Positions 14,970 through 64,000 of a DNA stretch of 64,000 nucleotides are shown one piece after another (within the stretch, counting starts at the first letter, position 1; each line of letters starts with the position of its first letter). The DNA is taken from assembly GCA_030248295.1 (NCBI GenBank), contig JASANH010001669.1:56034-120033 (forward strand). The letters run 5' to 3'. The notes beneath the pieces were generated by a model. The model was not told the origin of the DNA, did no database searches, and saw only the letters and a program-made list of their open reading frames with translations. The translations under genes were made by a program, and so were the position numbers. This DNA comes from Mesodorylaimus sp. YZB2_4 (taxonomy: Eukaryota; Nematoda; Enoplea; Dorylaimida; Dorylaimidae).

Positions 14970-16618
14970 ATTCGTGCTGGCAGTTGGTGTTTGTCCACGG
15001 CTCGATCGTTCAGGAAATTGTACAAAATGCAAATCGTCGTGATGCCGATTCTGTTTTCCGCCTTGGTGATGCCCACTCTGATCTACTGCCTTTTCCTTCC
15101 GACCGTGCTCATTGCTTTTATGATCTAAAACCATCTCTCTTTCAGGGTAGTCAACTAAAATGGTCACTTACAAACCAGAATTTATGGTAGACTAAAGGAA
15201 GAACAGGAGTTTTTGTATGAGAAAAGTGTTGATCTACTTCGGGGCGCTATCAATCTCAAAAGATGGAAAACAAAACTTTGGTAATTTCCATTGGTTCGCT
15301 GGATGTCAGGTGGTAAGGTTCAGATAATGGATGGGGTCCAGCCAGACTTTGCATGGGTGAACGGTAGAGGTCTACCGCGGAAAGGGCAAAGACAGGCCTA
15401 TCGGAAGGCAATGCGACTGCCCCCCTCCATATCACTCGTTAGCTATATCAGTTTCTGGCAGGCCTGTTCGCCGTCTTCCGAGGCCAGACCGCAGAAAGCG
15501 GGCAGAGAAGGTAGTTAGCCTGCGTCCAATCGTTGAGAGCACAGTCATGTCCAGCCCCCCCATCTCTGGTCGGGCGCCTCCTCAGTCAAACAAAACCATC
15601 CAATATGTAAATAAGATTTTGAAATAATTATTTTAAAGACAATTATCTAAAACCCAAAAACTCTTTGCCCTGCTGCCGTGACTGAAAAGAAATGAAATGA
15701 TGCGAGTGTTGTCACACACCAGCTCTGCAGCTATCCCAGGAACTAAAGAGCGCCTGGCGGAAAGTCGATAAGCAGAGCAATAGAAGAACACAAATGACGT
15801 CGAGGATAGGCCTGGCGCGAAGGGTGCAGAGCAGGCGTATCCAGTAGTTTGCACAAGAACTAGGCCAGATAGAAAGCATAGCAAACGAAGAACTTTTCCA
15901 TCGCATTTTTAAAACACATAACAGCAAAACTTCAAAGGTGAACATTGCCCGAGTGAGAACCAAGCGAAGCAGGCCAATCAGACACAGCCATCCATCACGA
16001 GTTGGAGAGACTTGAAGAAACATAATACGGGCAGAGAGTAGAAGTAAGAGAAAGGGTGGGGGGGGGGGGGGGGAGGGGGTAGCTGCTCATATCAACACCA
16101 TAAAAGCAGTTTCATGTAGTTTTTTGCCAGTGAACATCAACTTTCGCAAGCAAGATCTATGGAATGGGTTATGTACATTAGGTATATCTGGTCCAGCCAT
16201 CATTAAGAAATATGATTGCGTAAGATAAGTTTATGTCATAGGCGTTAAAATAATTAAAATAAAATACTGTATTGCCACTGTATATGGGGCTACTATAACA
16301 ACAGCATACCATAAACGGGTTCTTTTGATCTACACATACCAGTCTAATAAAGGCGGGAGATTTAAAATTTGTGCGTATAAACGCTGTATAGGTGGAACAG
16401 CTGATGAGCATGTCTATGTTATGTATTTCTTGGATTTGCGTCTTACTTTTTCTTTAACAAAAGCCAAAATGAGCAGGTAAATAATTTCTTTGCTTAATTG
16501 GTATGCCCACCTGGTGGGGCGCCTGCTGACTAACGAAAAGTCCTACATAGCATACGTTAATAGTGATTAGTGAGTACCAGCCATGTCGCAGAATGGTCTA
16601 AAGTAAGCGTTCTTCCTT
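14970..16618. other. Intergenic, no gene recognised; G16 tract
   Basis: The minus-strand frame continuing upstream of the GlcNAc-kinase ATG is 5' flank. A G16 run followed by A and G5 lies at 16058-16079. Nothing else is recognised. Confidence 0.5.
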
Positions 16619-17166
16619 CCCTTCCCTGGTCAAACTGTTAGTAACATCAAGTAGCTACTGTACGATACCTGTGCTAGAAGATAGTTCTCGCGGCTCTACA
16701 AAACTACGGTACTTTACGTTACAAATGAGGTCTATATAGTTCCGGGAAGGGTTTTTCGGCGCCATTCGGGCACCGTTCGACGGATTTTGATGAAGTTCGA
16801 CCCAAGCATGCGGGACATGGCACCCGAGAACCCTACGATGGGATTTCGCGAAATTTTGATCGGTTCGGGAGATATCGATCAAAAACGACTTCTGAAGTGT
16901 GGACCCCGCACTGGAGAATACGGGTCCGCAAGTTTGACCAGGGAAGGGGTAGGGTTCTCGGGTGCCATGTCCCGCATGCTTGGGTCAAATGTCATCAAAA
17001 TCCGTCGAACGGTGCCCGAATGGCGCCGAAAAAACCTTCCCAGAACTATATAGACCTCGTTTGTAACGTAAAGTACTGTAGTTTTGTAGAACCGCGAGAA
17101 CTATCTTCTAGCACAGGTAGCGTGCAGTAGCTACTTGATGTTACTAACAGTTTGACCAGGGAAGGG
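16619..17166. mobile_element. Fold-back (palindromic) element, 548 bp
   Basis: Two arms of about 220 bp (16619-16840 and 16947-17166) are near-perfect inverted copies around a ~105-bp centre. The outer ends read CCCTTCCCTGGTCAAACTG and its complement. Both arms carry open frames ending in VEPRELSSSTG, simply because they mirror each other. No protein family is recognised. The right end abuts the truncated LINE. Target duplications are not clear. Confidence 0.85.
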
Positions 17167-35938: not shown

Positions 35939-36011
35939 GCCTTGGTGGCTCAGTCGGTAGAGCGTGAGTCTCATAATCTCAAGGTCGTGAGTTCGATCCT
36001 CACCCAAGGCA
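35939..36011 (+). tRNA. tRNA-Met (CAT), elongator type
   Basis: The cloverleaf is complete: acceptor stem GCCTTGG/CCAAGGC, D stem GCTC/GAGC, anticodon loop CTCATAA (anticodon CAT), T arm GTGAG-TTCGATC-CTCAC and discriminator A. The U-U pair at positions 31-39 is also known in eukaryotic elongator tRNA-Met. The A box (TGGCTCAGTCGG) and B box (GTTCGATCC) are intact. No intron. The genomic CCA is absent, as expected. Confidence 0.96.
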
Positions 36012-37145: not shown

Positions 37146-39127
37146 TGTAGATGATGGATTTTAGAAATGAAAATCATCATTGCATATTTGTGATTATCTG
37201 GATCACAGAGGGTCACGTGAAATTTTGGTTTCGATAGTCACAGCAGCCGTGGACTTTCCGTAGTAAGGAGGGAAAGAGGGCCGGGTGCGACCTGTCACCA
37301 CGAGCCCACTAGGAGCCACTCATCGGACGATTATGGGTGGCAAAAATGGACGGGATTGGATGGGGCGGGTATATTTCAGCCAAATATAAAGGAGGTGGCT
37401 ACTTTGAGATTAATTGGAATCCGGGTGTTGGCTTTTGCGTGGACACAACTTTAACGTTAGAAAACATGAATGTGCTCACATTTCATGACAGGATGCGAGC
37501 AGGCACCATGTGGATCCTGGGATCCAGCATGGCCTACATGGCTTGGAAACTGTACGCCAGGCCGCGGGTGACTCACCCAAACCCAAACCCGGGGGAGAGA
37601 CCACCCCACCAACCCGGACAGGCCCCCCCCCCCCACCCCCCCCCCCGGAAACACCCCCCCCCCCCCCCCCCTGTGATCTTGTTTTTGCAAACCACATTCC
37701 ATTGAATACTCGTACTGTTTTGTAACCGAAAAAGTCCATATGCATATAAACTTTTTCCGCTGTCATTTGAAAAATCTTCGGTAACGGAACTGCAGTAATT
37801 TGAATCAATCGCGTGAGCCCCTGGTTTGGTGATGGCCTGTCCGCGGTAGCCACCAGTCAATGAATAACCGGCAACCGTCTTGGATAAGCCCTTGAGGTTG
37901 AAAATGTCCACACTGAACCAAGACAGCTGCATACTGTGCTGTGGCGTGCTGTGGCGTGACGGGGCGGGCGGTGGGGTAAGAATACACAGATTCGATTCCA
38001 TTACGATAAGATCTGGAATTTTCGACTCAGTAGAACCGTGCAAGGCTGGCTTACTTGGCCGAAAATACATGTGGAATGGTGGAAAGAAACTGGAGTTCTT
38101 GTTTCATAGGGGTCAGAAGCGGGGTGGCGAGTCAAAAGGCTGACTTTTGTGCGTGTCCTTTACGAATGGCCCTACTGCCTACACATGGCAACAAAAAAGT
38201 ATAAACTGCAGCGCAGTAATTACCTTCTTGCCTACCGGGCTTGCCTACCTTCTTGCCCGGGTACCTACCTGCATAAGGTCCGCAACATAATTCAGTCAGA
38301 GTTGCCCACAAACGTTTGTTCATTTTTTGACCCGAAAGGATCTGAACGTCTTTCCTAACTCCTTAAGCGTAGATCACCAGTCCAACTGAATCTCCTTGCA
38401 TGACTGTGTCTTTCTCATAACCAGGCCCACGCTGTCGATTATTCACTAATCGTTCTCGAAATACCTTGCATGCATAAACGTGTTCTAGTTGTGTGAGTGC
38501 AATTCAGACGTTGTCGAATCTTAATGATATACATAACTAGAATAAGCCTATCAGCTGACGATCAGTGAGCTGCTTCATCTTGAATGCGTCATGGTACCAA
38601 GCATGATTCATAAAAGTCTGAGTCTGAATCTGAAACCTTTATTCATTAAAAAAACGAATAAGTTCTTTCGAGACTGAAATTTATGAATTGCAGGCAGTGT
38701 GTGGCCATGATAAACAAATAAGAACAAAACCATTTTCTGTAATCTTCGCGTACGTTCTAGCCTGCAAGAGGTCAGTCACCCACCGCCAGGCGTAGAGAGA
38801 ACTTTAAAATTCTCAGACGGCCAGAGTTCGGTTTCCAGCTGCGCCAAGCAAACTGTGACACAAGCCTTTCACCGCGCTACACCACAGAGGCGGCTTCGAC
38901 AAGAATTTTCTGGAATGACTTCCAGGCATGCATCGAAACATTCAAGCCATGGAGCCTGTACAAGCACAAGAAAAACAAACGTCGCGCGGTCACTATCGTT
39001 GATGCGTCTGGTCCTGAGTACACCCAAGTAGGTACAGTCTCTGGTGGCCACGGTTTTGTCTACCCGTATTGCTTTGCTTGATAGAGAGAGGCGGGCTCGT
39101 CATGCATTCAATCCCCAGTGATGGAGG
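37146..39127. other. Intergenic with poly-C blocks and one possible exon
   Basis: 37623-37671 holds C12, C11 and C18 runs separated by a few bases; the proline- and glycine-rich frames across it are artefacts. On the minus strand, about 37685-37930 reads with coding-like texture (WFSVDIFNLKGLSKTVAGYS...SSIQWNVVCKNK-like), but it lacks clear splice sites and family. About 38875-39010 is a dispersed repeat also found at 55345-55450 (shared ATGACTTCCAGGCATGC). Confidence 0.4.
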
Positions 39128-40425
39128 TTGGTTTGCGAACCATAAGCACGCTTGTACGCCAGGCCGCGGGTGACTCACCCAGTACCGTCAAAGTGCTCCG
39201 AGTGGAGAGACGGACCCCAGCTGTCGATCGAACACGGACAGGGTTCACTGCCCGCCAGTCATCGTCCCAGGAAACTTGTATCTCGTTCACGATGCCCTCT
39301 GCTGTGTGTGCTGCCCCCCCCCCCCCCGCACAGCCGTGCTTTTACGGTTTGACTTCTGGTCGACTATAGGCAAAAATGATCTTCAGCCCGAAAAAATTTT
39401 AACAAAGCCAATGTAGTCTCTGGCATTTCTTGTATCTTAGCTAGCATATCAATTGTAGAAGTGAACTTTCAATTTCTAGACGCTCCTTCTTCGAAAACAA
39501 AAACCATCAAGGTATTCGCAGAAACGCGGCGGGTCAGTACAGTAAGTGGTATGGGAAATTTTAGAGCAGGCGGCGTGTTTTCAAGATTAAAAAAAAACTT
39601 TTACTGGAACCGCGTATCCTTCAGCCACATTTGCAAAACAATACATTCACTTCACACAACTGCTTGTTTTGTAATCTTATATATTAGTCGTGTACCAGAT
39701 TTCTCCAGTCAAGTGTGGCCAGGCAACTGAAATGGCTAATCCTAAAACTCTTAGTCTTTTATTTGCTCTGTTTCATATTGTAAAAGTAGAAACAGCTGAA
39801 GTCTTCACGCCAATTGCATTTGAGGCAAATGACACAATGAAGGTGAGTAAATTTTCATAATCCTTTCGTGAAAAAATGCTGATTCCTTATGATTTTTTTG
39901 TCCATACATAAACGTCAACACAATTACGGCTGCTACACGGTGAGTGGAGAAGGTCGTGAGACAACGTGTACAAGTGTGGGATGCACGCCAGACGGCAGCT
40001 CAACCAGCGTATGGCAATGCAGATACATCGAGTACTATGACAAGTGCATGTGCGTCAGGGGTGAGCTGCCACCGCACGAGTCTGTCTGCTATACGACTTA
40101 CGACGAAACTGGCTGGGTCACTGGGTGCTTGACGGTCAGCTGTCGCGGCGAATGCGAGTACGACGCGACCTCTCGTCAGTGTTACTGTAGGAACGTGTTG
40201 TAGGGACATGTTCCTCAATAACGAACCCAGAAAGGAGTATTGGAAAGAAGCAGTGATGATTGCATGCCTTGAAGTAATAAGATAAAATGTAGATACATGA
40301 AATACCTGTTGCTACAAGTATTTATCTAACTTTGGTAGGCGTGAAATTAAGAAGCTATAAGTAGATCTACCCGATATTGATACGATGACACATCTAAGGG
40401 CTAAAAAACTTTCCTAAGATGGGAA
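39128..40425 (+). repeat. Segmental duplicate A (cysteine-rich locus)
   Basis: This block is homologous throughout to 56560-57713. The upstream part (SINE-like GTGACTCACCC...GTGCTCCGAGTGGAGAGACGG, the promoter and the first exon) and the distal 3' part are clearly diverged with small indels. The stretch 39891-40267 is nearly identical to its partner. A C14 run at 39314 here corresponds to only four C's in the partner. Confidence 0.88.
39732..40203 (+). CDS. 12-cysteine small secreted protein, copy A
   Basis: First exon 39732-39842 encodes a signal peptide (MANPKTLSLLFALFHIVKVETA) and ends in a strong donor AAG|GTGAGT. The second part, from about 39919 to the TAG at 40201-40203, encodes 12 cysteines. 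They form two tandem six-Cys modules with similar spacing: C-x11-C-x4-C-x11-C-x8-C-x-C and C-x12-C-x4-C-x3-C-x8-C-x-C, both opening with CYT. The splice into exon 2 is unresolved: no AG occurs from 39848 to 39944, and the AG at 39945 gives the wrong phase for this donor. An ATG at 39889 opens the Cys frame without a signal peptide. Probably extracellular and disulfide-bonded. I recognise no family. Confidence 0.6.
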
Positions 40426-40454
40426 CGGCAGACACGAGGCAGACGGCTAACCCA

Positions 40455-47418: not shown

Positions 47419-47898
47419 GCTATTGCAATCGTCAGTGTTCGCCTTGCCTCCATATGCGATTCCGTCAGATATGGTCAAGCCTAGTTGGTTCAGCGATGGA
47501 AAGGATCAAGCTCGTCGACTTGCGTTTCATCAAGTCCATGTGATGCGAGTCATGGTTTTTGGATGTCCCAGTGTCGCAAGTAGTATAGGAGCGATGGTCA
47601 CACCGTCACTCCTCCAAGTCACTCAGGGTGGAGGAGGTCAAGACAGCCCACCCTTAGCCAATGTACAGTACTGGCTCACATTACTGACCCAGCCAATGAC
47701 CATATCGGCGGTACTCACTGTCCATACCCAGTATCATCCATGTGATTGACACATGTCAAATTCAAATCCAGCTTAAGTGACGCTTCTATGAAGCGGCGAG
47801 GTTTTTTGAATTTCCCGCCTTTACGTATAAAGGGCCTGTTATGTGTGCTATGTTGCGCCAATTCGGAAGTGACAACAACATGTCTTCGAAACCTACAG
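47419..47898 (+). pseudogene. Probable retroelement remnant
   Basis: After the inverted-repeat element, a coding-like stretch (FALPPYAIPSDMVKPSWFSD...AFHQVHVMRVMVFG) continues in the texture of the gag region, but no motif is diagnostic. Confidence 0.3.
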
Positions 47899-48256
47899 CG
47901 GAGCAGCTCGGAGCTGCTCATTTTGTTGCAGGAGCAGTTCCTCCTTACTGAGGAGCAGCCCGGAGCTGCTCATTTTGTGGCAGGAGCAGCTCCTCCTTGG
48001 TGAGGAGCAGCTCGGAGCTGCTCATTTTGTTGCAGGAGCAGCTCCTCCTTGGTGGAGAGCTGCTCAGAGTTGCTCATTTTGTGGCAGGAGCAGCTCCTCC
48101 TTGGTGGAGAGCAGCTCGGAGCTGCTCATTTTGTGGCAGGAGCAGCTCCTCCTTGGTGGAGAGCTGCTCAGAGTTGCTCATTTTGTTGCAGGAGCAGCTC
48201 CTCCTTGGTGGGGAGCGCAGCACTTTGGTAGCAGGAGTAGCTCCTACTTTGTGGGG
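47899..48256. repeat. Tandem array of ~52-bp units, about 6-7 copies
   Basis: Units start near 47901, 47953, 48005, 48057, 48110 and 48162, with a shorter, diverged end. Each has GAGCAGCTCGGAGCTGCTC then ATTTTGT.GCAGGAGCAGCTCCTCCTT. Both halves are self-complementary, so each unit can form hairpins. The period is not a multiple of 3, so the Ser/Leu- and Ala-rich open frames here are artefacts. Confidence 0.93.
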
Positions 48257-48402
48257 ACCTTTCCATTTTATGAGGTGAGCGGCAAATGTGAGAGCATACA
48301 CCATGCCAGTTTCCTACAAATCCAGTCAGGGCGTTCACTTTTTACCTTAGGCGGCTTTACTTCATGGTCCATGTTGCACTTATAAGCCTACAACCCCGCT
48401 CA

Positions 48403-50435: not shown

Positions 50436-52584
50436 TTATAATGTGGTTTTGAATAAGCTGTCGCACCCACCGCACGATTTGATGCAATCTTTGTTGAACT
50501 GTGGTCCCATTGTATTGTCGCTGCAATATTTGAGTATAGTGGCGTTGTAGCCGCAATCACGGTACTTGTCCACGCAAGTGGTTGGAACGCAGTACATACG
50601 CTTAAGTTGCAGCACGTCGCTCGGCTGAAGGATGTGCCCGTCAGCTATGAACTTGCCATCGACCGTCAGAGTGTCCGGTCTACTCCTATCGCCGTAATAA
50701 TACATCGTGCCGTATTGCATTGTCGAGTTCAGGTTGTAGGGTACGCCGTACGATGTGCTCTTTGTTTCCAGATTATAATTATGCAGCGAGTTTTCAGGAA
50801 TATTGGTCTTGTAGACTTTGATATACTTATCGCGGTCGTCCCGGCTTTGCTCATGATGACCGCCGAGCGCATGTATTGCTTCGTGCTGCAAAGTCGATTT
50901 AAAGTAATTGAGTCCCATGCAATTTGATTTGCTCATCCATAACGGCTGTGGTTGACTTTTGTCGACCACCCATCCCACGTAGCTTCGACCCCCGCAAAAA
51001 CTATTCGGTGTTATCACCAAAACTGTGTAGTCATTGGAAGAAGTCTGGGAGACTTTCTCGAATTTGATACAACCAACCGCTGCCGCCAGTTCGTTCAAGG
51101 CATCGGTCATTGCTTGTTCCTCTTGACTGCTGAATGAGCCATCTTGCGTCCATCGGATCGGCTGCGGCCAGAGGTACGTATAGTCGTAATTGATCCACTG
51201 CTCGAAAAACAGTGAGCCGGCACGTTTCTTTCGTGAACTTGGTTGACCATCAGCTCCTTTGTCGTCCAATTCCGCGATCGCAGCCTCAAGCTTGCTCTGG
51301 AGACAAGACAATATCGCGTTCCCACAGTCCATCGTCGGCTGGTTCGATCTCACCCAAACCTTGCTTTTGGTACCATTTCACCTTTAGTTCTTGGATTTTT
51401 TGTAACTGCGCCTCGACTTGGGTCTCCACTTCTTCGTCAGTGGCGTCTTTGAGTTTGCCGAGCCTCAATCCTTTTTTCAGATCGTCCTTCACGTGCTTTC
51501 GTCGTGCTTTATCTTCATTTGATTGTCCTTTGCATTTACCTTTCTTCTTTTGGCAATTTGCCTAAAGTTATTCATACTGTGGCAGATAGTAAGGGAAGCG
51601 GTATTATATGTGTTTCAGATTTTTAAGACCGAATAAGGCTACCCTGTGTCCAATAAAACTGTACCTTAAGCGAGGTAGAGCGCATAAAATTCAAAAACCA
51701 AAGTGACCCCTCACAAACCCCAGTGCACTCACAAGAGAACATCGCCAGCCGCTAAGCCGAACTTGTCAAAATAAAAAAATCTGTTTTGTTCTCAGGCGCA
51801 AAAGAAAGCTCTCTGCAAATTATCATAGGTATCTGGCCAACTGGTAGCGTCTAAAGTCCCGCGAATTTTTTAATTTTGTGGGGTGAGGAACCCAACGTTG
51901 AGAAAAACACGCAGGGTCCCTTTCAAACTAGGGTTTTTCGGATTTCAGGCTTCGAGTGTACGCCCCATCGCTTTGCCTGCCCAAAAACAGTCCTAGAGAA
52001 TTCAAAAATTTCGTGGGACTTTATGAGCTAACCGTTGCTGACCAGTTGGCCAGACGCCCCTTATATTTTGCAGAAAACTTTCTTTTGCGCCTGAGAACAA
52101 AACAGAATTTTTGGATTTGACAAGTTCGGCTTACCGGTTGGCGATGTTCTCTTGGCCCGCGACAAACCGCAGTGCGGTGGGGTCGACCGCAACCCCCCCG
52201 CCCCCCCCCCCCCCATCCTATTCCTGTGGTACAACATCGGGGGTGAGGGTATGAGGGACGCTTGGGGGAGCCGGGGCCTGGCGGGCTGACCATGCCCCAG
52301 TTCCCCCAAGCTGTACCACAGGAATGGAGGGGATGCGGTTCGTCCGCTCCGCCTTAAGGGTTGGCCATGTTCTCATGTTAGTGTAATGCATGAAACCCAC
52401 TCTAATCGGGCGTAACTCCGATGCTAGCACTTACCAGAATCTGCTCTTTTTCTTCATCAGTGAACACTTTATTGGGCGCCTTGCCCTTCGACGCCCCAGG
52501 TACGTTAGGTGGGCGTGGGGCAGTGATGGAAGAAATTGCGACCACTGCCAGAATAACCAGTGAGCAAAGAAATTGATGGTTCAT
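50436..52584 (-). CDS. Astacin metalloprotease with ShKT domain; frameshift in the prodomain
   Basis: Exon 1 (52584-52435, 50 codons) has signal peptide MNHQFLCSLVILAVVAISS and a GTAAGT donor. Exon 2 starts at 51561 after ACTTTAG. The prodomain ends near SRKKR, a furin-like site. The catalytic domain has the zinc motif HEAIHALGGHHEQSR (50885-50841) followed by DDRD, and the Met-turn STMQY, where Gln replaces the usual His. A C-terminal six-cysteine ShKT domain (CVDKYRDCGY...CIKSCGGC) follows. The architecture is that of secreted nematode-type astacins. The prodomain motif LWERDIVLSPEQ corresponds to the family FxGD segment, but its frame hits TGA at 51288-51286. The catalytic domain is in another frame. 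Either one extra base near 51287-51295 breaks the gene, or an 85-nt intron (AAG|GTGAAA to CTCCAG) restores it while removing that motif. Confidence 0.83.
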
Positions 52585-55205
52585 GGTTTTGCTGCCCACT
52601 TGATTGAATTCAGTGCCTACTGAATAGAATGACATAATCATAGTCTATGCTCAGTCCATGCCTGTTGATCGGTAGCTCAAAAAATAACCCCTCGCCCCCG
52701 CGGCGGCCTTTGCTTGCGTACAAGCTTTTCTATAAAGAGTTTACGGAGGGTCAGAATCGTGTTGACAGCATATGACTGACAGCCCTGAGAGGGAAAAAAA
52801 CGCACTCTCTTCTTGCAGTCCAGTGTGCTGGCCGCTTTACTTTTAAACGACTCGAGTCTCTAGCTCTCGAAATCCTTGGCCTATCCCAGGACGAACTAAT
52901 CGTAAGACAAGCCAGTGGACGGCCTTAGCCACAGGAACGAACCCACGCAGCCCACGACGCCTCGTGTATCGTTTATTCGTCAACCACACACAAGGGTTGT
53001 TTAGGCTCACAACTCGAAGGGCGGCCGCACGTGTCGATCCTTACGGGGGTTCTGATGGTCCTGAGCCCGAATTGCCCAGAGTGCAATTCAGACCAGGAAC
53101 TCAATACCGGTCGTCACCCAATTCCTGCAAACCAAACCAGTCACTCGGCCTCATGTCTGGCCCTGACCTACGAGAGGCAGACCAGCTCCCTGAACCAGTG
53201 CACCGATAGGTGCAGACAAGTGTATCCACGCCTATTACACTCTCTACCTCCAGTACAACAAGATCGTCCTCAAAAATTAAAAAGATACTGTATGTCAGAT
53301 TCTTCCCTTGTGGTAGGATCTTGGTTAAACAAAAGCTAAGAAAATGCAAAGACGCATGGACTTTCCAACATGTCGTACCTTTTCGCTGTAAAAAGTCGAG
53401 ATGTGATGGTACAATGGCTACAGCGGCCATCTATGTGTACCGCAATGTTAATTAATACCAAGCTTACATACATACTAGGCTTCTAATGAGCCAGTCCCCT
53501 CAAAACTGTGTTGGTCTCAGATTCCTAAGGTACCTGTCCGTTCTAAAGAAAGGTCGAGAAAAGAATCCACATGTAAAATATGTGGTTTGACTGGTGCCTA
53601 CATGTTTCACATCGCTCTTGGGTCCACGTGATGAGCGCGGAAGTCAATACGTGCTGGCGGATCCAGCTGGGTCAATCTTGGAGGATGTACAGTATGAAGC
53701 CTGTATCCCTAAAGGGGTTTCAGCACCAAGAGATTAAGATCTGTGCCGAAGTCACCTCCCCAAAGGTCATGAAAGAGAGGTTTCAAGACGGTAAAAGAAT
53801 TTGTGTCCCCCCCAGCTTACCTCCAGATTCAAAGCTTGCTAGCCAATAATTTTGAAATAGAAACACAGCCAGTACGGGTTCAATGATGAGTTAGACGCTC
53901 TCGCCTTTTTATACCCAGCGTTTAGGCACCGTTCTGAGACTGGTTATATAATTATAGTAGCATTATCATTCGTCATAAACTTGCTCGATCGTAGAATTCG
54001 TTCATGCATAACTATCGAATGTGAGGTCGACTTGAGTCGAGTCACATAATTATTTGCTTTGATGGCAGTTAAAATCAATCACCAGAGAAGCTGGATTTTA
54101 ATGCTCGCTCCTACGCGATTAAATTTAGCTCGCACTACTGTTCAACGTATCCATAATAAAAGGCTTTGTACCGACGATCGCAGCGATCGTATGTCATTTC
54201 GTAGAGAATTTCGTAGAGTTAGAACTCCACGTGTCCCTATGACTGAAATATGTCTATGCTTACGTGGCCGTTTTTGGTCGCCTCACTGCTCTAACACTCC
54301 CAGTCAAATTCTCATTGATGAGCGAGTGGTGGAATCATCATCAGTATGCATGCAGGGGTAATAATCACTGTCCAGAGGATAAGAGTACTTCGCTCTGAGC
54401 GACCATGCCCATGCAATCCTGGCTTTTTGATCGTTTCAGCCAGCTAAGGCAATGGCATTGTTAAAACTGATCCAACATGGCCAGTTCATGAAAAGCCTCA
54501 AAAAGAGATATTTGCGGGTGGGGACGTCGATGTTTGCAGAGACTGTCCAAAGCCACTAGTCTTGAATTGTGAAGCTGAAGCTTTCCGCGAGATTATTAGC
54601 TGTGAATAAGACACTAAAAGGATGAAAGACCCTGCGGGCGACCAGCGTGATGAATCCTCTATTTCCCTTCGATGAATCCCCTGCGTGATGGAATCCTCAA
54701 TTTGCTACGACTTAACGTGACCTATGCGATACCCTTCCCCCAGCTTCGGGTGGGAATACCCACACGCGTGCGTGGTTCGAATCACCCTTGCGCGGTTACT
54801 ACCAAAACGGACGCTAAACGATAGCTCTTTATTGGACCGACGGAAGGGTAACTCTACGAATGTGAATTTCTAACGATTAGACAAGCATTTGAAAAGGGGG
54901 TCCTGTGACGTTTGCCCCACTCAGTCGATTCTCCCACTGTGTCGTTTCCCCCACCGTGCCTGTTGGAGGAATCGACTCGCTGAGACATGTGGTCTCCCCC
55001 CACTGTGCCGGCTCCTCAACCGTGTCGCTTCCCCCGCCAATGCGAAATTGCCTAGCTCGGGAAATCAATTAAAAAGAAGATATACATTTAGGCAGTAACA
55101 CCTGGGCGAATTCACTAGCATGACAGCTGCAGATTTTGGCAAAGCAGTTTTCTCACTCACGAAACATCAGGCTCATCTTTGTTCTCGGACTAGTAGTACC
55201 TTGGA
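52585..55205. other. Upstream region of astacin and intergenic DNA
   Basis: The astacin promoter lies here; TTTTCTATAAAGAG near 52727 is a TATA-like site about 145 bp upstream of the ATG. A C14 run is at 52201-52214 inside the astacin intron. From 53 to 55.2 kb no gene is recognised; 54059-54361 is a 100-codon Arg-rich frame without a domain. Confidence 0.4.
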
Positions 55206-55240
55206 CCCAGCATCGACCGTTCTGACCGAACCGATCTGAG
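55206..55240. mobile_element. Solitary CCAGCATCGACCG-family end
   Basis: CCAGCATCGACCGTTCTGACC followed by GAACCGATC matches the termini of the elements at 7997 and 22177. No matching right end or 8-bp duplication was found downstream. Confidence 0.5.
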
Positions 55241-55302
55241 GGGTGCAGGGGTGATTAGCATAGCAATCGACAACTGCGGCTATCGGGCGGAGTGGACAAC
55301 TG

Positions 55303-55353
55303 CGCTACAATATGCCTCGCGCCAGCACTGTTGGCGCGAGGCATATTGTAGCG
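55303..55353. repeat. 51-bp near-perfect palindrome
   Basis: Two 24-25-bp arms (CGCTACAATATGCCTCGCGC and its complement) meet with almost no loop. The right-hand arm leads into a dispersed repeat shared with 38875-39010 (ATGACTTCCAGGCATGC). Confidence 0.85.
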
Positions 55354-55584
55354 TTGGTGAAAAGAATTTGCTGAGAATGACTTCCAGGCATGCGTCTAAA
55401 CATTCAAGGCAGGAAGCTACATATTGCTTACAAGGACACGAAAAACGAAAGCCACCTGGCGACCAGGTATATGTCGACATAACCGATAGCACTTTTTCAA
55501 CGGGGCGATATTTGATATGAACGAATTGCTAGTTTGCATACTTGCAGGTCATGCATCTCCGCTTATGATTAGGATACCGCAAAG

Positions 55585-56470
55585 TACTGTTCGAAATTGT
55601 ATGGCTTTTTAGCTTTTGTATTGTATTGTATTGTACGTAGCACCCAACAATCAATTTTGTATTGTATTGTACTAATACAAAAGCCAAAAAAAACTTTTGT
55701 ATTGTATTGTATTCTTTTGCATTGTATTGTATTATATTGTACTGCCAAATTTGCGCAAAATTAATAAATCCACAGATGCCATAATAAATCCACCGATGCC
55801 ATCAAGTTTTAACTGAGTGGCCGAATCTTCACGTTTCTTTTTCATTTCACCTTCATTTTTTTTCATTTCTATATATTGCGTTTCATGACGACATTTCACA
55901 TGGAACTCAGAATTGTTGGGATACCAACCAGACACGACATGACCGCATTTTTGACCATTCGAACCAACAACAATGCATTCTGATTCTTTTCTAGCCCCAA
56001 CTTGAAATAGGTCGAAATATTTCCAAACGGCTTTTCGCTTTGTACGAGAATTGCACAAAACTCGATCCCCCGTGTTTTCGGCAGAGGAGGAGCAATTATT
56101 TCCAAATGAGTACCTTCGGATGAAGAAGAAGACATGACTTGATCCGTATTTTCTATAGGAGAAACAGTTCCGCCCAAATAAATATCATCGGATGAAAAAG
56201 ACATGATTTCATTTGATGAGAAATTACTGTATGATGCGCAGGATCTATACAAACTCGCCTGTTTAAACTGCAAATGCAATGCCGTAATACAAAACTTACA
56301 GGGAAAGTTTTTGTATTGTATTGTATTGTACATAGCACCCCAAAATCAATTTTGTATTGTATTGTACTAATACAAAATCCCTAAAAAGTTTTTTTGTATT
56401 GTAATGTACGCAGTACAATACAATACAATACAAAAACTTTTGTATTGTATGAGTACAATTTCGAACAGTA
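55585..56470 (-). mobile_element. hAT-type element with BED-finger remnant
   Basis: The terminal inverted repeats TACTGTTCGAAATTGTA and its complement are flanked by the direct 8-bp repeat CCGCAAAG (55577-55584 and 56471-56478). Arrays of TTGTATTGTATTG-type words lie inside both ends in opposite orientation, like hAT subterminal repeats. The minus-strand interior encodes KAVWKYFDLFQVGARKESECI...C..H-type sequence resembling a BED zinc finger, which many hAT transposases carry at the N-terminus. An upstream Ser-rich acidic part is in another frame. There is no catalytic domain, so it is an 886-bp deletion derivative. Confidence 0.82.
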
Positions 56471-56559
56471 CCGCAAAGGTTACTTTTCGTAGAATGTTGC
56501 ACCCTCTAGCACCAGTGTACCTGTCTCTCACTTGCTCTGCTTGTCATCGAAGTACTAGT

Positions 56560-57713
56560 CTTCTCTACTGGGGTCTTACAGGGTGACCCACCCAGTTCAG
56601 TTGACGTGCTCCGAGTGGAGAGACGGAAGCAAAACGAGGAGACAGTCTCGGCTGTCCAACACTGACACAGCACACCCTCCATCGTCCGGGGAAGTAACCA
56701 GTCTAGGGTGCCCTCGTGTGAGGTGCTCCTAGTGAAGTTACACAGGCACTCTTCTGTGTGTGCTAGGCCCCGCACAGCTGTGCTTGTAAGGTTTTAACCG
56801 CTGGTCGACCAGGCAAGACGGACTTTGGAGTAGAACTTTAAAGCGCTATCAAGTATTTGTATACGAAATACGACGGGTCAGTAATTGACATGGAAAATGC
56901 CATTGCATGCCAGGCATTGAAAATGTGCTTCCAATAGCCCCATTTGCAAAAAATACATTCACTTGGCTGTTTTGAAACTACTGCACATAACATTGTATAA
57001 CAGTCGTGCATCAGATTCCGCCAGTCAAGTAAATGTGGCCAGGGAACTAAAATAGCTAGGCCCACAACTCTTACTCTTCTCTTCCCCCTGTTTCATATTT
57101 TACAAGTAACAAGGTCTTCGCGCCAATTGCATTTGGGGCAAATGATAAGGGTGAGTGAATTTTCAAAATCTTTTCGCGAAACCATGCAGATTCTTTGTGA
57201 TTTTTTTGTCCATACATAAACGTCAACACAATTACGGCTGCTACACAGTGAGTGGAGAAGGTCGTGAGACAACGTGTACAAGTGTGGGATGCACGCCAGA
57301 CGGCAGCTCAACCAGCGTATGGCAATGCAGATACATCGAGTACTATGACAAGTGCATGTGCGTCAGGGGTGAGCTGCCACCGCACGAGTCTGTCTGCTAT
57401 ACGACTTACGACGAAACTGGCTGGGTCACTGGGTGCTTGACGGTCAGCTGTCGCGGCGAATGCGAGTACGACGCGACCTCTCGTCAGTGTTACTGTAGGA
57501 ACGTGTTGTAGGGACATGTTCCTCAATAACGAACCCAGAAAGGAGTATTGGAAAGAAGCAGTGATGATTGCATGCCTCAGAATAATAAGCTAAACTGCTA
57601 AATAAAAAAACTATCGCTACAAGTTTTCGTCTAACTTAGAGGCGTGCTCTATTTAGATCTGCCTAACATTAATACGACGATGCATATAACTAGAAACCTT
57701 GCCAAAATGAGAG
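56560..57713 (+). repeat. Segmental duplicate B (cysteine-rich locus)
   Basis: Partner of 39128-40425, with the same order of blocks: SINE-like GTGCTCCGAGTGGAGAGACGG, GCACAGC.GTGCTT, TTTGCAAAA..ATACATTCACTT, CCAGTCAAGT, the signal-peptide exon, the cysteine exon and the 3' flank. It is diverged except for about 57199-57576. Confidence 0.88.
57052..57511 (+). pseudogene. 12-cysteine secreted protein, copy B (start codon lost)
   Basis: The position of the start ATG in copy A reads ATA here (57052-57054). The signal-peptide exon has two deletions (about 7 and 5 bp) that scramble the frame. The cysteine-rich part (to TAG at 57509-57511) differs from copy A at one silent base (ACG/ACA Thr). As read, this copy cannot make the secreted precursor, though another upstream exon cannot be excluded. 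Confidence 0.7.
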
Positions 57714-59460
57714 AGGTAATCTTCTAGTCGGAATTGTGACCCATGTCAATCACGAGCGCAGACAGGGCGAGACATCGGCAGGGTAACACGGGAAATCAGC
57801 AAGATGCTTGTGCATCAAATAGCACGTCCAGCAGTGTTTCCATTTCCTCGCTGCGAAGGTCAGTTCTGTGACCATAGGTCTCTTGAATTGCATGCCCATT
57901 TTGATTTTTCCTGCATGACATTTTTTTTACAATAAAAATTCAAAATCTAGGCAGTAAACGCAAGATATCGTAATTTCCACGAACCTGAGAAAACTTCACG
58001 ACAAACTTATCCGAAAATCGAACATAATTTTCCAAATGGTAAAGTGACTAAACTTTTCAGATTCTCCGCGTGCCGGAAGCTCGCGACGAACGGTTTTTTG
58101 TCGAAAAATTTCCGTTTGCAACGAGCTGCAAAAGTTTTGCCGCTGCCGCGTGGAATGGTCCTCCAGGTCTATACTTCCCTGCGACAAAACGGTCTCTTTT
58201 ACGATGCTCGCAGCTTAATTCGGAACGGTCTTGGCCTGTGCGCGACAGATTTTTTTTGTCGCCGTCGTAGTGCAAGGAACTATAGACGAGGCTATAGTCC
58301 CTTGCACCAACCCTGAAGACCAGCTGGAACCAGTGAACTGCGCCGACTTTGCGATTACAAATCCCCTCTTTTATGTCAAGCCAGAAAACGCGTGTCTCAC
58401 AATTTTATGCCCGCCCAAGGCTTTTCTAAGAATATGTATGCGCATTTGATGCTATCACTCAAATGCTCGAAGGACATGTGGTCGACTAATGCGCAGTGTG
58501 CGTGAAGGTGTATGCTCTTTACAGTAGGTGTAGCTGCCCACGCGTTTTCGCAGGGCTGGAAAGAAAGGTCCACGGGTTTTCAACTGAAATAATTCGGCCA
58601 TTATTAAAAATTTTAATGTACCTGTAGATATTGAGAGGCGAAATCACTGATGGATAACTCTATTGTGACTGGAGAGCGCCTGTATCGATATGCATCGCAA
58701 CAGAACAGTTCCTCGCTCTTTTCAAGAGCAGAGTTAAAAGCAACTTGCAGTGTGGCATGAATGCGGTTTTACGGCGCAGCAGGCAGCAGTATGATTGAAT
58801 CTGGTTTTGCCGTAAAGGATTTTTGCATGTAATCATCGTAGTCAAGTCCGTGGACGTCTAGCACCTTTGAAAAACTTGAAAAACATGTAGGTTTATGAAA
58901 TCCTGCGCTTGCTTACTCATTACAGTAGCTCTTGTGTCTTTTCCTTCTTTAATCACCCCCTTCTAACTAAGCGAAAATTAATAATGTTTTCGACGACCGT
59001 TGGACCTTGTGACAAGCTGCGTAGTTTATACCTCTTTAACATTTCTGTACAAATGAGATAAATTGAGCCGCTGCTAGATAAAAATATGCTTCTACGACTG
59101 CTCTTTGGAACAGTAGGTACATAATCTGTTCACACAATTTGTCGAAAGTGGAGCAATAGAACAGAATAGACACAGAAAGCAAGATATCTCCCCCCCCCCC
59201 CCATATACTTACTTCGCCTACCTATGCCACTACGACATTTTTTAAGAACAGCGAAACAGCGAATGCGAATGCGTAATACGCAAATTTCTCAACTGCTCCA
59301 GACAGTAGGTACAAGTTTGCGTATTCCGTATTTTTCCTGCAGTAAGTCAGTGCATATCTAGTCCCATACTTCGACTAATAATCTGAAGCACCCTCCACTA
59401 AATCATCGGCCGCCATGACAGTTCCACAGACATTCGGACATGGCAGTATATTTCACTTGA
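57714..59460. other. Intergenic with hairpin and half of a diverged repeat pair
   Basis: 58270-58307 is a hairpin (GTGCAAGG..CTATAG / CTATAGT.CCTTGCAC). 58231-58449 is an open frame with several cysteines but no clear start. 58810-59200 is homologous to 60360-60690 (AAAACATGTA, TCCTTCT..AATCA, CAAATGAGAT/CAGATGAGAT, AGAAAGCAAGA). C13 at 59190-59202. Confidence 0.45.
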
Positions 59461-59935
59461 AAGCCGCGGTGGCTCGTTGGTTCCGCACTGCTTGGGCCAG
59501 CAATCCTGACGGGTTGGCCGCAGTTCTGTTCCGGCTGAGGATGGCAGTTTAGTAAGCCCGTTCTCAGAGTGGGAGCTGGTCTTCGATGGCAATTTTAGCT
59601 ACAGTAGTCCGTCGCTGGCCTTGCACACGTGGCTGGCTCTGGGCGACTCACGGTACTGTCACGTGGCGGACAGCGAACGAGTAGAGAATGAGGAAATAGG
59701 TTCTTGAACACCAGTCGGGAAGGTCTCTCCCTTCTCGCCAAGTATCATCCTGGGATGCTGATGCTGGCACAGGATGCCCTCGTCTGCTGTCCCTAGAGGA
59801 GACACGCAAGGGGAAGCTTTTGCAAGAATAGGTCACCCCACGGCCATCTTATCATCATGGCTGCTAGCTGGCAACAAGCGAAATAGGTTTCGAGTCCTGT
59901 GGGGAACTGGGCCCGACCCACAAAAATTTAAAAAA
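59461..59935 (+). mobile_element. tRNA-derived SINE, family 1, fullest copy
   Basis: The head GCCGCGGTGGCTCGTTGG holds the A box and GCAGTTCTGTTCCGG the B box. Body blocks are GGCAGTTTAGTAAGCCCG, CCTTGCACACGTGG, GGGCGACTCACGG and ACTGTCACGTGGCGGAC. It ends GGGGAACTGGGCCCGACCC and an A-rich tail. About 100 bp in the middle (about 59660-59750) is extra relative to the 9.4-kb copy. Confidence 0.8.
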
Positions 59936-61829
59936 AGAATATATGATGTCCGTTTCGCCTATGATCAGCTTTAATCGTCTGACGGGAAAAATTTCTGTTA
60001 GCTTCAATCATGCCTATCTCAGCGTCAGCTGCTTATATCAATACAAGCAAGGCAAGCGACGCCTATGGTATGATATGCATATGATTCTTCTGCAATTTTC
60101 TTTCCTATTGTCGTTTTGGAAACATGAGCGATTCTGATACTGATGCAGAATTGCGTTGTGCTGACGCCCAACTACAACAAGAATGAGAGCAAAGGGGAAT
60201 TTTATATGCGTCCTACGAAATATGGAACGGATAGAATTTGAAATTTCTGTCCAAGCATTCGCGCATTTCACTGAATCGTGAGATTAAAAAAAATGGGGGC
60301 AGCAAAAACGCGGTTTGATGGCAGTCCAGCTTGAGTGAATGTTATTTGCTGCCGGCTAATCGATGAAGCAGTTGCGCTTTTTACATGTATCTTCGTAATC
60401 AAGTCCATGGCAGACAAGCAGCTTTTAAAATTGGAAAAACATGTATTCCTTGTGATCAGGCCTCACTTATTAGCTGTCCTTTCATTCTTTTCAATTATCT
60501 CCTTCTAACAAAAAAACGACCTTTGGACATTGCTGCGCACTTCCAACATGCAGATGAGATCTAGCTTGAGTCAATTTCCTCTGCTAGAAAAAATGCTTTC
60601 ATGACCCTTTGAAACGCTAAAGAATCTGTACAGTCGATCACTACAGTCAAGAAGCAAAAAGCAAGAAATTCTTTCCTCTTCTATCCCCGCATCTTTCTCC
60701 GCCTGCCTCTGCCGCTGCCACTTCGGCACTTCGAAGAGCAAACAACGCTGAATCCAAGTCAGTAACGGTCATAATCAGTGGCGAGAAGGGCTTGTGATCA
60801 GCGAATAGCGGTGATTTCCTTGTTAGTTTTCGAGCACAGTTAAAAGAATTTTACAGAAGCATGACAAGCGGTAAACACCTGCGCACAAGTTCAGTCATAT
60901 GCTACAGTAAGTTATATACAAATATAAAATAAGAAGAAGTTTTTTTGGGCGAATTTCCAAAGGGTTACCTGTCCTAGAGGTATATTGCGGCCACAATTAT
61001 TGACCCTAGCTGCCATAGTTCGGCATCATATTCCTGGGGTTGTTAAATTTTAAGGCAGGTTTCGGCTTTTGTCGCATTGGTTTTGATTTCTGAACTACGA
61101 CTTGACCTCCCGCTGACACAAGTTTAAGCAGCAGCAGTTTCAGAGTAAAGTCATGCACAAGCGGCAGACTAGCATTTTTGTAAGTCGTGTAGTGTTGCAG
61201 CCCTGGTCTACCCACTCACTAGTCATCGAGGTTCGACTACGGAAAAATATCTACAGTAGGTGATACCATTCGAGCCGCCTTCCATCAAATGTTCTAGAAG
61301 ACCCATGAGAACAAAGGAGGCCTGGTGATATTCCTAAGCGACGCGGGGTGGTCTAGTTGGGGTGGTACAGTAAGTAAAGGCGTGTCTGCCGCTACCTTTG
61401 TCGGTAAAGTAACTAGACGGTACAGTTTGACACCATCGACGGTTTGCATGTTGCAGCGGGCGATCTCACACTTGCACAGTGCAGCAGCATCGAGCGGCTG
61501 AGATTCCTCTGGGTATGTGATACAAGTCGATTTGTTCAGCTATATTAGCCCTGAAGCAAATAACTGCGCAGTTGTACGAAGCAGGTCGCAATCATAACAT
61601 CCTTAATTGGCTTCATTGTGCGGAGCTATCAAAAGGCACGGCACCTTTTGAATTTTTACAAGAGCTAGTTTTTCTCGAATGTAGAAAATGCCAGAACAAA
61701 AATTTTTCAACATTTTTGTTATTTCAATAATTACGAGGAGCTAGTTAATAGTCATAGTACCGCCGTGAGCATATAAGAGAGCAACAGCGTCGAGGAAGCT
61801 ACTCGACCGTATTTCGTTAGCAGTGAGCG
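59936..61829. other. Intergenic, second half of the repeat pair and promoter of the small secreted gene
   Basis: 60360-60690 pairs with 58810-59200. CATATAAGAG at 61770-61779 is a TATA-like site about 58 bp before the ATG at 61830. No other gene is recognised; a minus frame at 61006-61215 lacks an ATG. Confidence 0.45.
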
Positions 61830-62139
61830 ATGGCTTTGATCACTGTGCTGATTTTCAGCTTGATTCTGAGCTCGTTCGCCAGTGAGATGGCAGGAAAATT
61901 TGAAAAGGAAGAGAAAGAGTAAGGTTTCTGTATTTGGTAACATAATACAGTATCACTGTACTTCTGATGATATCTCAAACAGGATCGATCCAAAACTGCT
62001 GGCCATCGGATTGAACAAGACAATTAGAGAAGCCCAAAACACCCAGAAACCGACTACTGGAATAAAATTGCGTATCGTTGGTAAACTTGGCATCATTAAT
62101 TGCTACATTAGTGTGTCACGATGTGCTCGTATAGGCTGA
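61830..62139 (+). CDS. Small secreted protein, two exons (81 residues)
   Basis: Exon 1 (61830-61918) encodes signal peptide MALITVLIFSLILSSFAS and EMAGKFEKEEK. The donor is GA|GTAAGG. A 64-nt intron ends CTCAAACAG, and exon 2 (61983-62139) continues in phase with IDPKLLAIGLNKTIREAQ and ...KLRIVGKLGIINCYISVSRC, ending in TGA. The mature peptide would be about 63 residues with two cysteines. A TATA-like CATATAAG lies 58 bp upstream. The in-phase junction, signal peptide and short intron make it credible. No family is recognised. Confidence 0.68.
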
Positions 62140-62527
62140 GGTGACACCGATGATTGGATTCGCACAAGTGCTACTACTGCATGAAGAAACATGAAGAAAC
62201 TGGTTTTTAAAAATACATACAAGGCATCTGCATATTTCTTATTGCGATGTGATCTACAGTATTAGCACTTCGGACTACAGATGTACAGTGCATATAGCCG
62301 CACTACATGGTGCCCCAAAAGTTTTCATACATACAAGTGTTTCTTGCTTTTCTTTTGGAAGTTTTAGCGCATTTCAACGTTGAACCGTGAGTTATCAGGC
62401 ATATATGTATGTATAGCTTATTTCATCAAATATTCGAATAGCCAAGTGAGTAGCCAGGGAGATAGACCGTGATATTTTTCTAAAATTTCCAACAACTGGC
62501 AGTGAGATAATTAATCAAACGCTTTCC
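62140..62527. other. Spacer, nothing recognised
   Basis: 3' flank of the small secreted gene and the border of the LINE fragment. No structure seen. Confidence 0.4.
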
Positions 62528-63182
62528 TCAGATCGAAAAAAAAACTGCGCCAACACATTTTGACACTTTGAAATTTAGAGCGTCGTGAATAAATTGGGTG
62601 AGTCGTACAAGAGCTTTTGTCGCAGAGTGATTTGTCGCAGATAATATTGGTAGAAGTGAGATAGGCCGATAATTAGCAGAGGACCCTGCTTGGCAACAGG
62701 TACACTTTCCAACACGATGGAAATCGACATTCCAGTAACGACCGCTTACATAGCTCAGAAATAGCCGTAGTGATAGAGGGGCAATATTTCGAAGAACAGG
62801 GGCTGTCAAGCCATCAACTTCAGGTGAACCATTTAAGCGGAACGAGTCTAATTGCTTCCGAACGAGCCCAATGGAAACTCCACAATCAAAATAATCGCCA
62901 GCATCAAGTGCCGGTGGGACATATTTGATGTTTTTATTCCCACTGAAATTTCGAAGAAACGAATCTTGCAATAAGTTGGCCTTCTCTGCAGATGAATAAT
63001 AGACTTTCCCAAATTCCTCAGTCAAGGCTGGGATAGATCGATCCGAGGGCAAGAAACGGAGATAGGCAGCCTAAAATTCTTGAGACGAATGACAGTCAGC
63101 AAATTGGCGATGCACATAATCCTCGTGCGCCTTTCTAACATTCTTTCTGACTTGCTTCCGCAATCTAAAAAAGCAGCCATGC
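62528..63182 (-). pseudogene. LINE fragment, same family as 17-19.5 kb
   Basis: The minus strand reads LRKQVRKNVRKAHEDYVHRQF..SSQEF, a TAG at 63073-63071, then AAYLRFLPSDRSIP...GSPEVDGLTAPVLRNIAP and SANYRPISLLPILS. These align with the pre-RT region of the other LINE (SSNDF-stop-AA...GEDGLTVSILKNIAP...SNYRPISLLSIIS). It is truncated before the catalytic palm. Confidence 0.82.
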
Positions 63183-63232
63183 TCACCCCTCACTAGTTAC
63201 GGTGAGTCATCGATCCCCCACCCCCGTGGACT

Positions 63233-63740
63233 ATGTGCTAGCACTTATGTGCTCTCTTTCTTCGTCAATGAACACTTTATTGGGCCTTGCCCTCCGACGC
63301 CCCAGCCACGTTCGGTGGACGTGGAGCAGTGACGAAAGAAATCACTGTGTAATGACGATCCCCAATGTGGCTCGCACAAGCACTTGTCTGCGGGCTCAGG
63401 TTCTCAGGGGCTTGAGGTTGTAGTATGAGGACTCACAATCCCGAACCGAACTCACCAAACGTGCACAGACTACGATGAGCCATACTCGATTATTCACACA
63501 CAGATATTCCCGAAACGCACGTACACTACTACTCTCGGTGACAGTCAACCAACAGTCTCCCTAGCATAGCAATGCACACGCCCGACCAGAAGTATGCAGC
63601 ATTACACTATCATTCGGATACATGCGGACGCACGCTATCATTCCAGCACAGCTTCATCGCAACTGCCAGGATAACCAATGATCAAAGAATGTGAAAATTC
63701 ATGGCTGTCGTGCCCACTCCTACTGTATAGAATGACGTAT
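63233..63740 (-). pseudogene. Dead copy of the astacin first exon
   Basis: 63233-63340 and 63658-63735 match 52440-52540 and 52543-52640 of the astacin locus (AATGAACACTTTATTGGG; ACTGCCAGGATAACCA; TAGAATGACGTA). The start ATG survives at about 63702, but the signal peptide reads MNFHIL-stop-SLVILAVA, with TGA for the Cys codon. About 310 bp of foreign sequence (63345-63655) splits the exon. The donor region (GTGCTAGCACTTATG at about 63234) has lost the clean GTAAGT. Upstream sequence to 63900, including a TATAAAAT at 63866, resembles the astacin promoter. Confidence 0.82.
63345..63655. mobile_element. ~310-bp insertion in the dead astacin exon
   Basis: The astacin locus is continuous where this sequence interrupts its copy. 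It begins TGTGTAATGACGATCC and ends near CATTCCAGCACAGCTTC; it could be a solo LTR or a SINE-type insert. No convincing target duplication or coding frame was seen. Confidence 0.5.
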
Positions 63741-64000
63741 TTTTTTTATTTTTTTTCACTGGCACTTTTTTCGTAGCATTAATTTAAAGGTGAATGACGC
63801 ATAATCCGTTCACCCACGATAAGCCCATGCCTGTTTCACTGCGGCTCGTAAAGTAACCCCTTGGTATAAAATCCCTCGCCTACTAACTCTTTCGCAGTAG
63901 CCCGCAGAATCTTTAGCTTTCGATCTCTAGAGCGCCAAGATAGAGGTCAAAAACTGAAAGGATGTGCCTCAGAATCTTCCCTTGCCATGAGATCTTGTCA
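63741..64000. other. 5' flank of the astacin-like pseudogene
   Basis: Continues the similarity to the astacin promoter (CATGCCTGTT...AGTAACCCCT) with TATAAAAT at 63866. The window ends here. Confidence 0.4.

What the first reader, a model, noticed from the sequence alone, without database searches (positions are those of the whole stretch)
39891..40267. Near-identical cysteine-rich exon between two otherwise diverged duplicates: gene conversion
From 39891 to 40267 and 57199 to 57576 I find essentially one difference (ACG/ACA, silent). The sequence on both sides (promoter, signal-peptide exon, distal 3' flank) is plainly diverged with indels. Copy B has lost its ATG and signal-peptide frame, so selection on copy B cannot explain the identity, and the tract includes 3' UTR. 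Recent conversion across ~17 kb is the simplest reading.
Basis: seen in the sequence. Interest (0 to 1): 0.72.

Follow-up and report, generated by a model that had tools for sequence, protein, structure and literature searches.

The report
Recently copied exon between gene duplicates
A 380-base piece covering the main coding exon of a small, probably secreted, cysteine-rich protein has recently been copied between two old, otherwise diverged gene duplicates in an invertebrate animal, an ordinary process (gene conversion) with the twist that the copied piece seems to carry a damaged splice signal.

Summary
A (39890-40269) and B (57198-57577) differ at 1 of 380 positions (silent). Their homologous flanks differ at 101 of 402 positions plus 11 indels, with abrupt edges; 0 of 20,000 column shuffles come close.

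The window is the end of contig C277, which overlaps the start of C25 at about 99%. C25 carries a second version of B (B') with the same breakpoints, which speaks against a chimera at B. Gene conversion is the best reading. It is recent: A equals the inferred B/B' ancestor at 380 of 380 sites.

Two supporting points are amended. B has lost its ATG, but its signal exon is open and returns to phase. The shared "promoter" is partly a dispersed repeat.

New: the only other relatives found (E, F; 38% and 33% identical) have the same two-exon structure with an AG acceptor. A, B and B' have TG at the homologous place, inside the tract, so the tract carries a non-AG, probably damaged, acceptor. Direction is unproven; A to B is mildly favoured. 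A known kind of event, of modest interest.

The parts
39890..40269 (+). Conversion tract, copy A: last 11 nt of intron 1, exon 2, 66 nt after the stop
   Evidence: 1 difference in 380 to copy B, 2 in 380 to copy B' on contig C25; flanks 25% different
57198..57577 (+). Conversion tract, copy B
   Evidence: contig C25:1650-2029 is a second version (B') with the same edges
39732..39842 (+). Copy A exon 1: ATG, hydrophobic signal-like sequence, 111 nt, ends in phase 0 before GTGAGT
   Evidence: sequence, phase by arithmetic; the exon structure matches relatives E and F
39843..39900 (+). Copy A intron 1 (58 nt), GTGAGT...TTTTTTTG: ends in TG, not AG
   Evidence: position inferred by homology with E and F, whose phase-0 introns end in TAG a few codons before the KRQ segment
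39901..40203 (+). Copy A exon 2 with stop: 100 residues, 12 Cys, KRQ near its start
57052..57150 (+). Copy B exon 1 remnant: ATA in place of ATG, 99 nt without stop, phase 0
57151..57208 (+). Copy B intron 1 (58 nt), also ends in TG
57209..57511 (+). Copy B exon 2 with stop
38898..40424 (+). Extent of the duplicated unit around A that can still be aligned, in four pieces
   Evidence: blastn pieces against 55359-57712; two of the four pieces lie in the dispersed repeat
55359..57712 (+). Extent of the duplicated unit around B, interrupted by an insertion at 55585-56470
39128..39373 (+). Dispersed repeat upstream of A (related sequence at 56581-56816 upstream of B)
   Evidence: 49 match rows in the genome at E <= 0.001, A itself included; 40 of 1508 first-look candidates scored
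54666..64000 (+). Contig-end overlap with C25:13-8315, 41 mismatches in 7926 aligned columns: second version of the stretch that holds B
   Evidence: C277 ends at window 64000

Best explanation
A and B are old tandem duplicates, 17.3 kb apart and in the same orientation, of a small two-exon gene. Exon 1 encodes a signal-like peptide. Exon 2 encodes a segment with KRQ near its start and 12 cysteines. A recent interlocus gene conversion replaced about 380 bp of one copy, from the last bases of intron 1 through exon 2 into the 3' UTR, with the sequence of the other (shown: mosaic and its edges; inferred: conversion as the mechanism). It happened before or about when the two assembled versions of B (B, B') split. 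Direction is not proven. A to B is mildly favoured because B has no ATG, yet its exon 2 is intact, and B' has since lost a conserved cysteine. The tract carries a TG in place of the AG acceptor that the relatives use, so the copied exon is probably not spliced at its homologous site (inferred).
For: Mosaic divergence: 1/380 inside, 101/402 outside, abrupt at both ends, 0 of 20,000 shuffles reach it. The 66 nt after the stop are identical (P about 5e-9 at the flank rate), and there is one change in the 100 third codon positions, so protein selection alone fails. The tract holds intron sequence, so a spliced cDNA is not the source (sequence). B' on C25 has the same edges with B-type flanks. A equals the inferred B/B' ancestor at 380/380 sites; 95% upper bound 0.8% against 25% in the flanks. 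The B-B' difference in the tract (3/380) fits the overlap-wide rate (expected 2.0, P = 0.31). B' changes are Cys40 to Ser and Glu44 to Gly of exon 2 (numbering mine). The tract length fits reported averages of about 500 bp in one yeast study and 200-300 bp in most follow-ups (PMC3924818, passages).
Against: Flank identity (75%) is below the 80% above which conversion is said mainly to occur (PMC3924818, passages) and the 92% proposed in PMC3966225 (passages), so a single exchange between such diverged copies would be unusual unless exon 2 was already more alike. Locus A is assembled only once, so an error at A is not independently excluded. B and B' come from one assembly and could be recent duplicates and not alleles. 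No outgroup is close enough to polarise direction. The TG acceptor is present in both copies, which weakens 'A is the healthy donor'.
Confidence: 0.9

Rival explanations
1. Recurrent conversion (a variant of the best explanation, not exclusive of it): exon 2 has been homogenised again and again while the flanks escaped and diverged; what we see is the latest round.
For: Flanks at 75% identity are poor substrates for a first exchange (published limits). GC3 of the converted exon is 64% in A against 44.7% and 48.5% in E and F and 40.5-58.5% in six long ORFs of the window, as GC-biased conversion would give.
Against: Only one tract with one pair of edges is visible; the GC3 comparison has few and partly unverified coding stretches, and the astacin ORF (58.5%) comes close.
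Confidence: 0.35
2. Assembly artefact: reads of one copy were used to build or polish the other.
For: Locus A is represented once in this assembly; no reads were available.
Against: B and B' on two contigs have the same mosaic; B and B' carry three private differences between them; polishing would not be expected to erase 25% divergence over 380 bp in register (inference).
Confidence: 0.05
3. Strong purifying selection on exon 2 alone keeps the copies alike.
For: Frame and cysteine pattern are kept in A and B.
Against: One change in the 100 third codon positions and none in 66 nt after the stop, while flanks differ by 25%; B lacks a start codon; relatives E and F are only 38% and 33% identical in the same exon.
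Confidence: 0.02
4. Pseudogene-to-gene transfer (a direction of the best explanation): B (no ATG) was the donor and gave A its non-AG acceptor, silencing A, as in CYP21A1P/CYP21A2 type events (recalled).
For: The acceptor TG lies inside the tract while E and F have AG; published work found TG only as an alternative site near an AG within 28 nt (PMC2374985, abstract and passages), while in A the next AG ends 44 nt after the TG and none lies in the 40 nt before the exon. B and B' do have an AG ending 19 nt before the end of the TG.
Against: If B had been a long-standing pseudogene its exon 2 should carry stops or frameshifts, and it does not; the TG may predate the duplication.
Confidence: 0.3

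Closest known systems
Interlocus gene conversion between duplicated genes (reviewed in PMC3924818; passages seen)
   Same: Short in-register tract (380 bp), same orientation, 17 kb apart, sharp edges
   Different: Flanks only 75% identical, lower than the range given there as usual (above 80%)
GOT1 paralogs of the copepod Tigriopus californicus (PMC3728101; abstract and section list seen)
   Same: Mosaic of low and high divergence between animal paralogs; conversion that does not keep every copy functional
   Different: Different gene; population data there, here one assembly with one locus in two versions
Pseudogene-mediated conversion such as CYP21A1P/CYP21A2 (recalled; only a search listing seen)
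   Same: Exchange between a gene and a copy with a lesion, a lesion lying inside the tract
   Different: Direction unknown here; not shown that A is or was functional
TG 3' splice sites (PMC2374985; abstract and passages seen)
   Same: Intron whose homologous 3' end is TG after a T run
   Different: Published human TG sites have an AG acceptor within 28 nt; in A the nearest AG ends 44 nt downstream, whereas B and B' have one 19 nt upstream

Membership tests
Interlocus gene conversion | Paralogs much more alike in a bounded tract than in both homologous flanks | tested here: met
   1/380 against 101/402; 0 of 20,000 shuffles
Interlocus gene conversion | Tract in register, no target-site duplication or displaced insertion | tested here: met
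   No gap inside the tract or at its left edge; the nearest gap on the right lies in the flank beyond 40269
Interlocus gene conversion | Identity not explained by selection on the protein | tested here: met
   66 nt after the stop identical; one change in 100 third positions
Interlocus gene conversion | Not an assembly artefact | tested here: inconclusive
   B seen on a second contig; A assembled once, no reads
Interlocus gene conversion | Flank identity high enough for efficient exchange (above 80%, PMC3924818; about 92%, PMC3966225); not strictly defining, exceptions are stated in PMC3924818 | tested here: inconclusive
   The measured value lies below both limits: 301 of 402 flank positions identical, 75%; identity of exon 2 before the exchange cannot be known
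Interlocus gene conversion | Non-reciprocal transfer with a donor and a recipient | not testable with these tools
   No outgroup close enough; E and F are 38% and 33% identical in protein
Retrocopy / cDNA insertion | Intron removed, poly(A), new location | tested here: not met
   Intron end inside the tract, no poly(A) at the edge, homologous position
Functional TG-AG 3' splice-site tandem, copy A | AG acceptor within 28 nt of the TG | tested here: not met
   Next downstream AG ends 44 nt after the TG; none in the 40 nt before the exon
Functional TG-AG 3' splice-site tandem, copies B and B' | AG acceptor within 28 nt of the TG | tested here: met
   AG ends at 57189 (B) and C25:1641 (B'), 19 nt before the end of the TG; distance alone, no RNA evidence
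Known protein domain family for exon 2 | Match to a Pfam model or a solved chain | tested here: not met
   Pfam: 0 families for P0001 at E <= 0.1 and for 4 of 4 members at E <= 10; PDB sequences: 1 match at E 1.4, none by profile at E <= 10; Foldseek on a weak model (pLDDT 65): 71 matches at E <= 10, none at E <= 0.001

The most novel reading that the evidence does not exclude
The converted exon carries a non-AG acceptor that conversion has spread between paralogs. Either one copying event disabled a previously working gene, or this animal uses TG as a sole 3' splice site in A, which the human survey (PMC2374985) reported never to find.
Probability: 0.25. Interest if true: 0.45.

Novelty: new member of a known kind. 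Interest (0 to 1): 0.27.

Why it matters
It is a clean, short, very recent conversion tract with a second version of one locus to support it, at a flank identity (75%) where conversion is thought to be rare. The shared TG acceptor makes a testable case of a lesion spread, or tolerated, by conversion in a family (four loci found) of probably secreted cysteine-rich proteins that matched no Pfam family here. As a mechanism it is well known.

Tried and rejected
Protein selection, retrocopy and chimeric assembly of B were considered and disfavoured. The idea that C25 holds a third, unrelated paralog was dropped: C25's start is another version of the contig end. A possible further copy at C25 about 15.75-16.1 kb matched only the dispersed repeat stretch; beside it lies what reads by eye like a retrotransposon polyprotein on the other strand (not searched). 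Further family members were sought with A, E and F as protein queries at E <= 10: each found the same 5 places, B's locus counted twice, so 4 loci; more distant members may have been missed by the first look. Alternative splice pairs for A that keep the frame by arithmetic exist (10 pairs among the GT and AG tested), but each drops 16 to 30 residues of exon 2, with the KR site and the first cysteine; stops were not checked in them. A structure model of exon 2 (4 sequences, pLDDT 65, pTM 0.41, eight strands) is too weak to name a fold, and the Foldseek hits are chance level. A literature search on conversion in invertebrates was used only for PMC3728101. The species was not identified; the COX1-like sequence reads best with AGR = Ser (judged by eye).

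Full report
What was checked. The window is G000:C277:56034-120033 of an unnamed 145-Mb genome in 1067 contigs, and C277 ends at the window's last base. Pfam matches in the window include an astacin, a rhodopsin-type receptor and amiloride-sensitive channel stretches, so the source is taken to be an invertebrate animal (inference). Two regions, 39600-40430 and 56930-57720, were aligned together with their counterpart on contig C25. The A/B tract is 39890-40269 and 57198-57577, with 1 difference in 380. The 5' flank has 58 mismatches in 261 compared bases and 6 indels; the 3' flank has 43 in 141 and 5 indels. In 40-base windows the difference count goes 8, 5, 0 at the left edge and 0, 2, 7, 11 at the right edge. 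With columns shuffled 20,000 times, the longest run without a difference was 85 (observed 330) and with one difference 114 (observed 380).

The third copy. A DNA search of the whole genome with the tract found 3 places: A, B and C25:1647-2029. BLAST of C25:1-20000 against the window showed that C25:13-8315 matches window 54666-64000, the end of C277, in four collinear pieces at 98.9-99.2%. So C277's right end and C25's left end are two versions of one stretch, most simply two haplotypes left unmerged. A recent segmental duplication is not excluded. The two versions differ by an 886-bp insertion present only in C277 (55585-56470), with terminal inverted repeats and an 8-bp duplication, and by length differences at window 60669-61207 and 63896-63907. 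B' has B-type flanks (B-B': 1/269 and 2/142 mismatches) and the same tract (3 differences from B, 2 from A). All three variable sites in the tract are private to B (1) or B' (2), so A equals the inferred ancestor of B and B'. The overlap-wide mismatch rate is 41/7926 aligned columns; 3 in 380 fits it (P = 0.31). The distance between A and that ancestor is 0/380, upper 95% bound 0.8%, against 25% in the flanks.

Why conversion. The tract lies in register between homologous flanks, covers coding and non-coding parts (66 nt after the stop identical, P about 5e-9 at the flank rate), and contains intron sequence, so it is not a cDNA copy. The length suits reported tract lengths (averages of about 500 bp in one yeast study, 200-300 bp in most follow-ups; PMC3924818, passages). 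What does not fit well is the flank identity of 75%. PMC3924818 states that conversion mainly occurs above 80% identity but can occur below, and PMC3966225 proposes about 92% (passages). Either exon 2 was already more alike than the flanks, or earlier rounds of conversion kept it so. GC3 of the exon (64% in A) is higher than in E and F (44.7%, 48.5%) and in six long ORFs of the window (40.5-58.5%), a weak hint of recurrent, GC-biased conversion.

What the gene is. Protein searches with A, E and F each returned the same five places at E <= 10: A, B, B', and E and F, which lie 77-78 kb to the left of A on the minus strand of C277 (18451-18759 and 17550-17852). In exon 2 E and F are 38% and 33% identical to A. 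All share two exons with a short phase-0 intron (E 50, F 56, A and B 58 nt), a hydrophobic first exon, KRQ near the start of exon 2 and a cysteine pattern; A has 12 cysteines. A signal peptide, a dibasic cleavage site and a secreted disulphide-rich peptide are the natural reading (inference; no signal-peptide program was run). No Pfam family or solved chain matched beyond chance.

The acceptor. E and F end their introns in CTGTAG and TTTTAG. At the homologous place A, B and B' read TTTTTTTG, a TG, and this lies inside the converted tract (39899-39900). A has no AG in the 40 bases before the exon, and the next one ends 44 bases after the TG. In B and B' an AG ends 19 bases before the end of the TG, which is within the published distance limit. 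The published human survey found TG sites only as alternatives to a nearby AG, within 28 nt, never alone (PMC2374985, abstract and passages). So A is probably not spliced normally at that place, unless this animal differs. Ten GT/AG pairs in A keep the frame by arithmetic, but each loses 16 to 30 residues. No RNA data were available, and a base-calling error shared by the three copies is not excluded.

Copy B. Its start codon is ATA in both versions, and no in-frame ATG lies upstream before a stop. Its first exon is 12 bases shorter than A's (gaps of 3, 4 and 5) but has no stop, and it meets exon 2 in phase. In B' a cysteine shared by A, B, E and F has become serine, as expected of a decaying copy. 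This makes A to B the slightly better direction, but it is not shown.

Upstream similarity. It was left out of the flank statistics, which start at 39600.

Verdict. The event is of a known kind. The shared non-AG acceptor is the one point that could make it more than that.

Noticed in passing
55585-56470: 886-bp insertion present in C277 but absent from C25: ends TACTGTTCGAAATTG in inverted orientation, 8-bp duplication CCGCAAAG; looks like a hAT-type non-autonomous element (type recalled, not tested).
   Followed up: partly
54666-64000 and C25:13-8315: Unmerged contig ends: C277 and C25 overlap at about 99% and are probably neighbours in the genome.
   Followed up: yes
39128-39373, 56581-56816, C25 about 15751-16100: Dispersed repeat of about 170-250 bp; the longer matches elsewhere are 72-78% identical (1508 first-look candidates, 40 scored). 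SINE-like in size; no Rfam match in the window at this place.
   Followed up: partly
60669-61207 and 63896-63907: Length differences between the two versions of the contig end (C25:5124-5328 and C25:8017-8222).
   Followed up: no
47849-48264: Tandem array of a 52-bp unit that lies mostly within a 170-aa open frame at 47873-48385.
   Followed up: no
16619-17166: 218-nt inverted repeat, 95% complementary, 112-nt spacer.
   Followed up: no
51732-52154: 114-nt inverted repeat, 88% complementary, 195-nt spacer.
   Followed up: no
G000 contigs C73, C273, C741, C47 and others: 15 COX1 match rows, several with TAA/TAG stops and fragmentary: probably mitochondrial DNA copies in the nuclear assembly, and a COX1-like frame on C73 that reads with AGR = Ser.
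   Followed up: partly
35939-36011: tRNA gene (Rfam, 69.3 bits).
   Followed up: no
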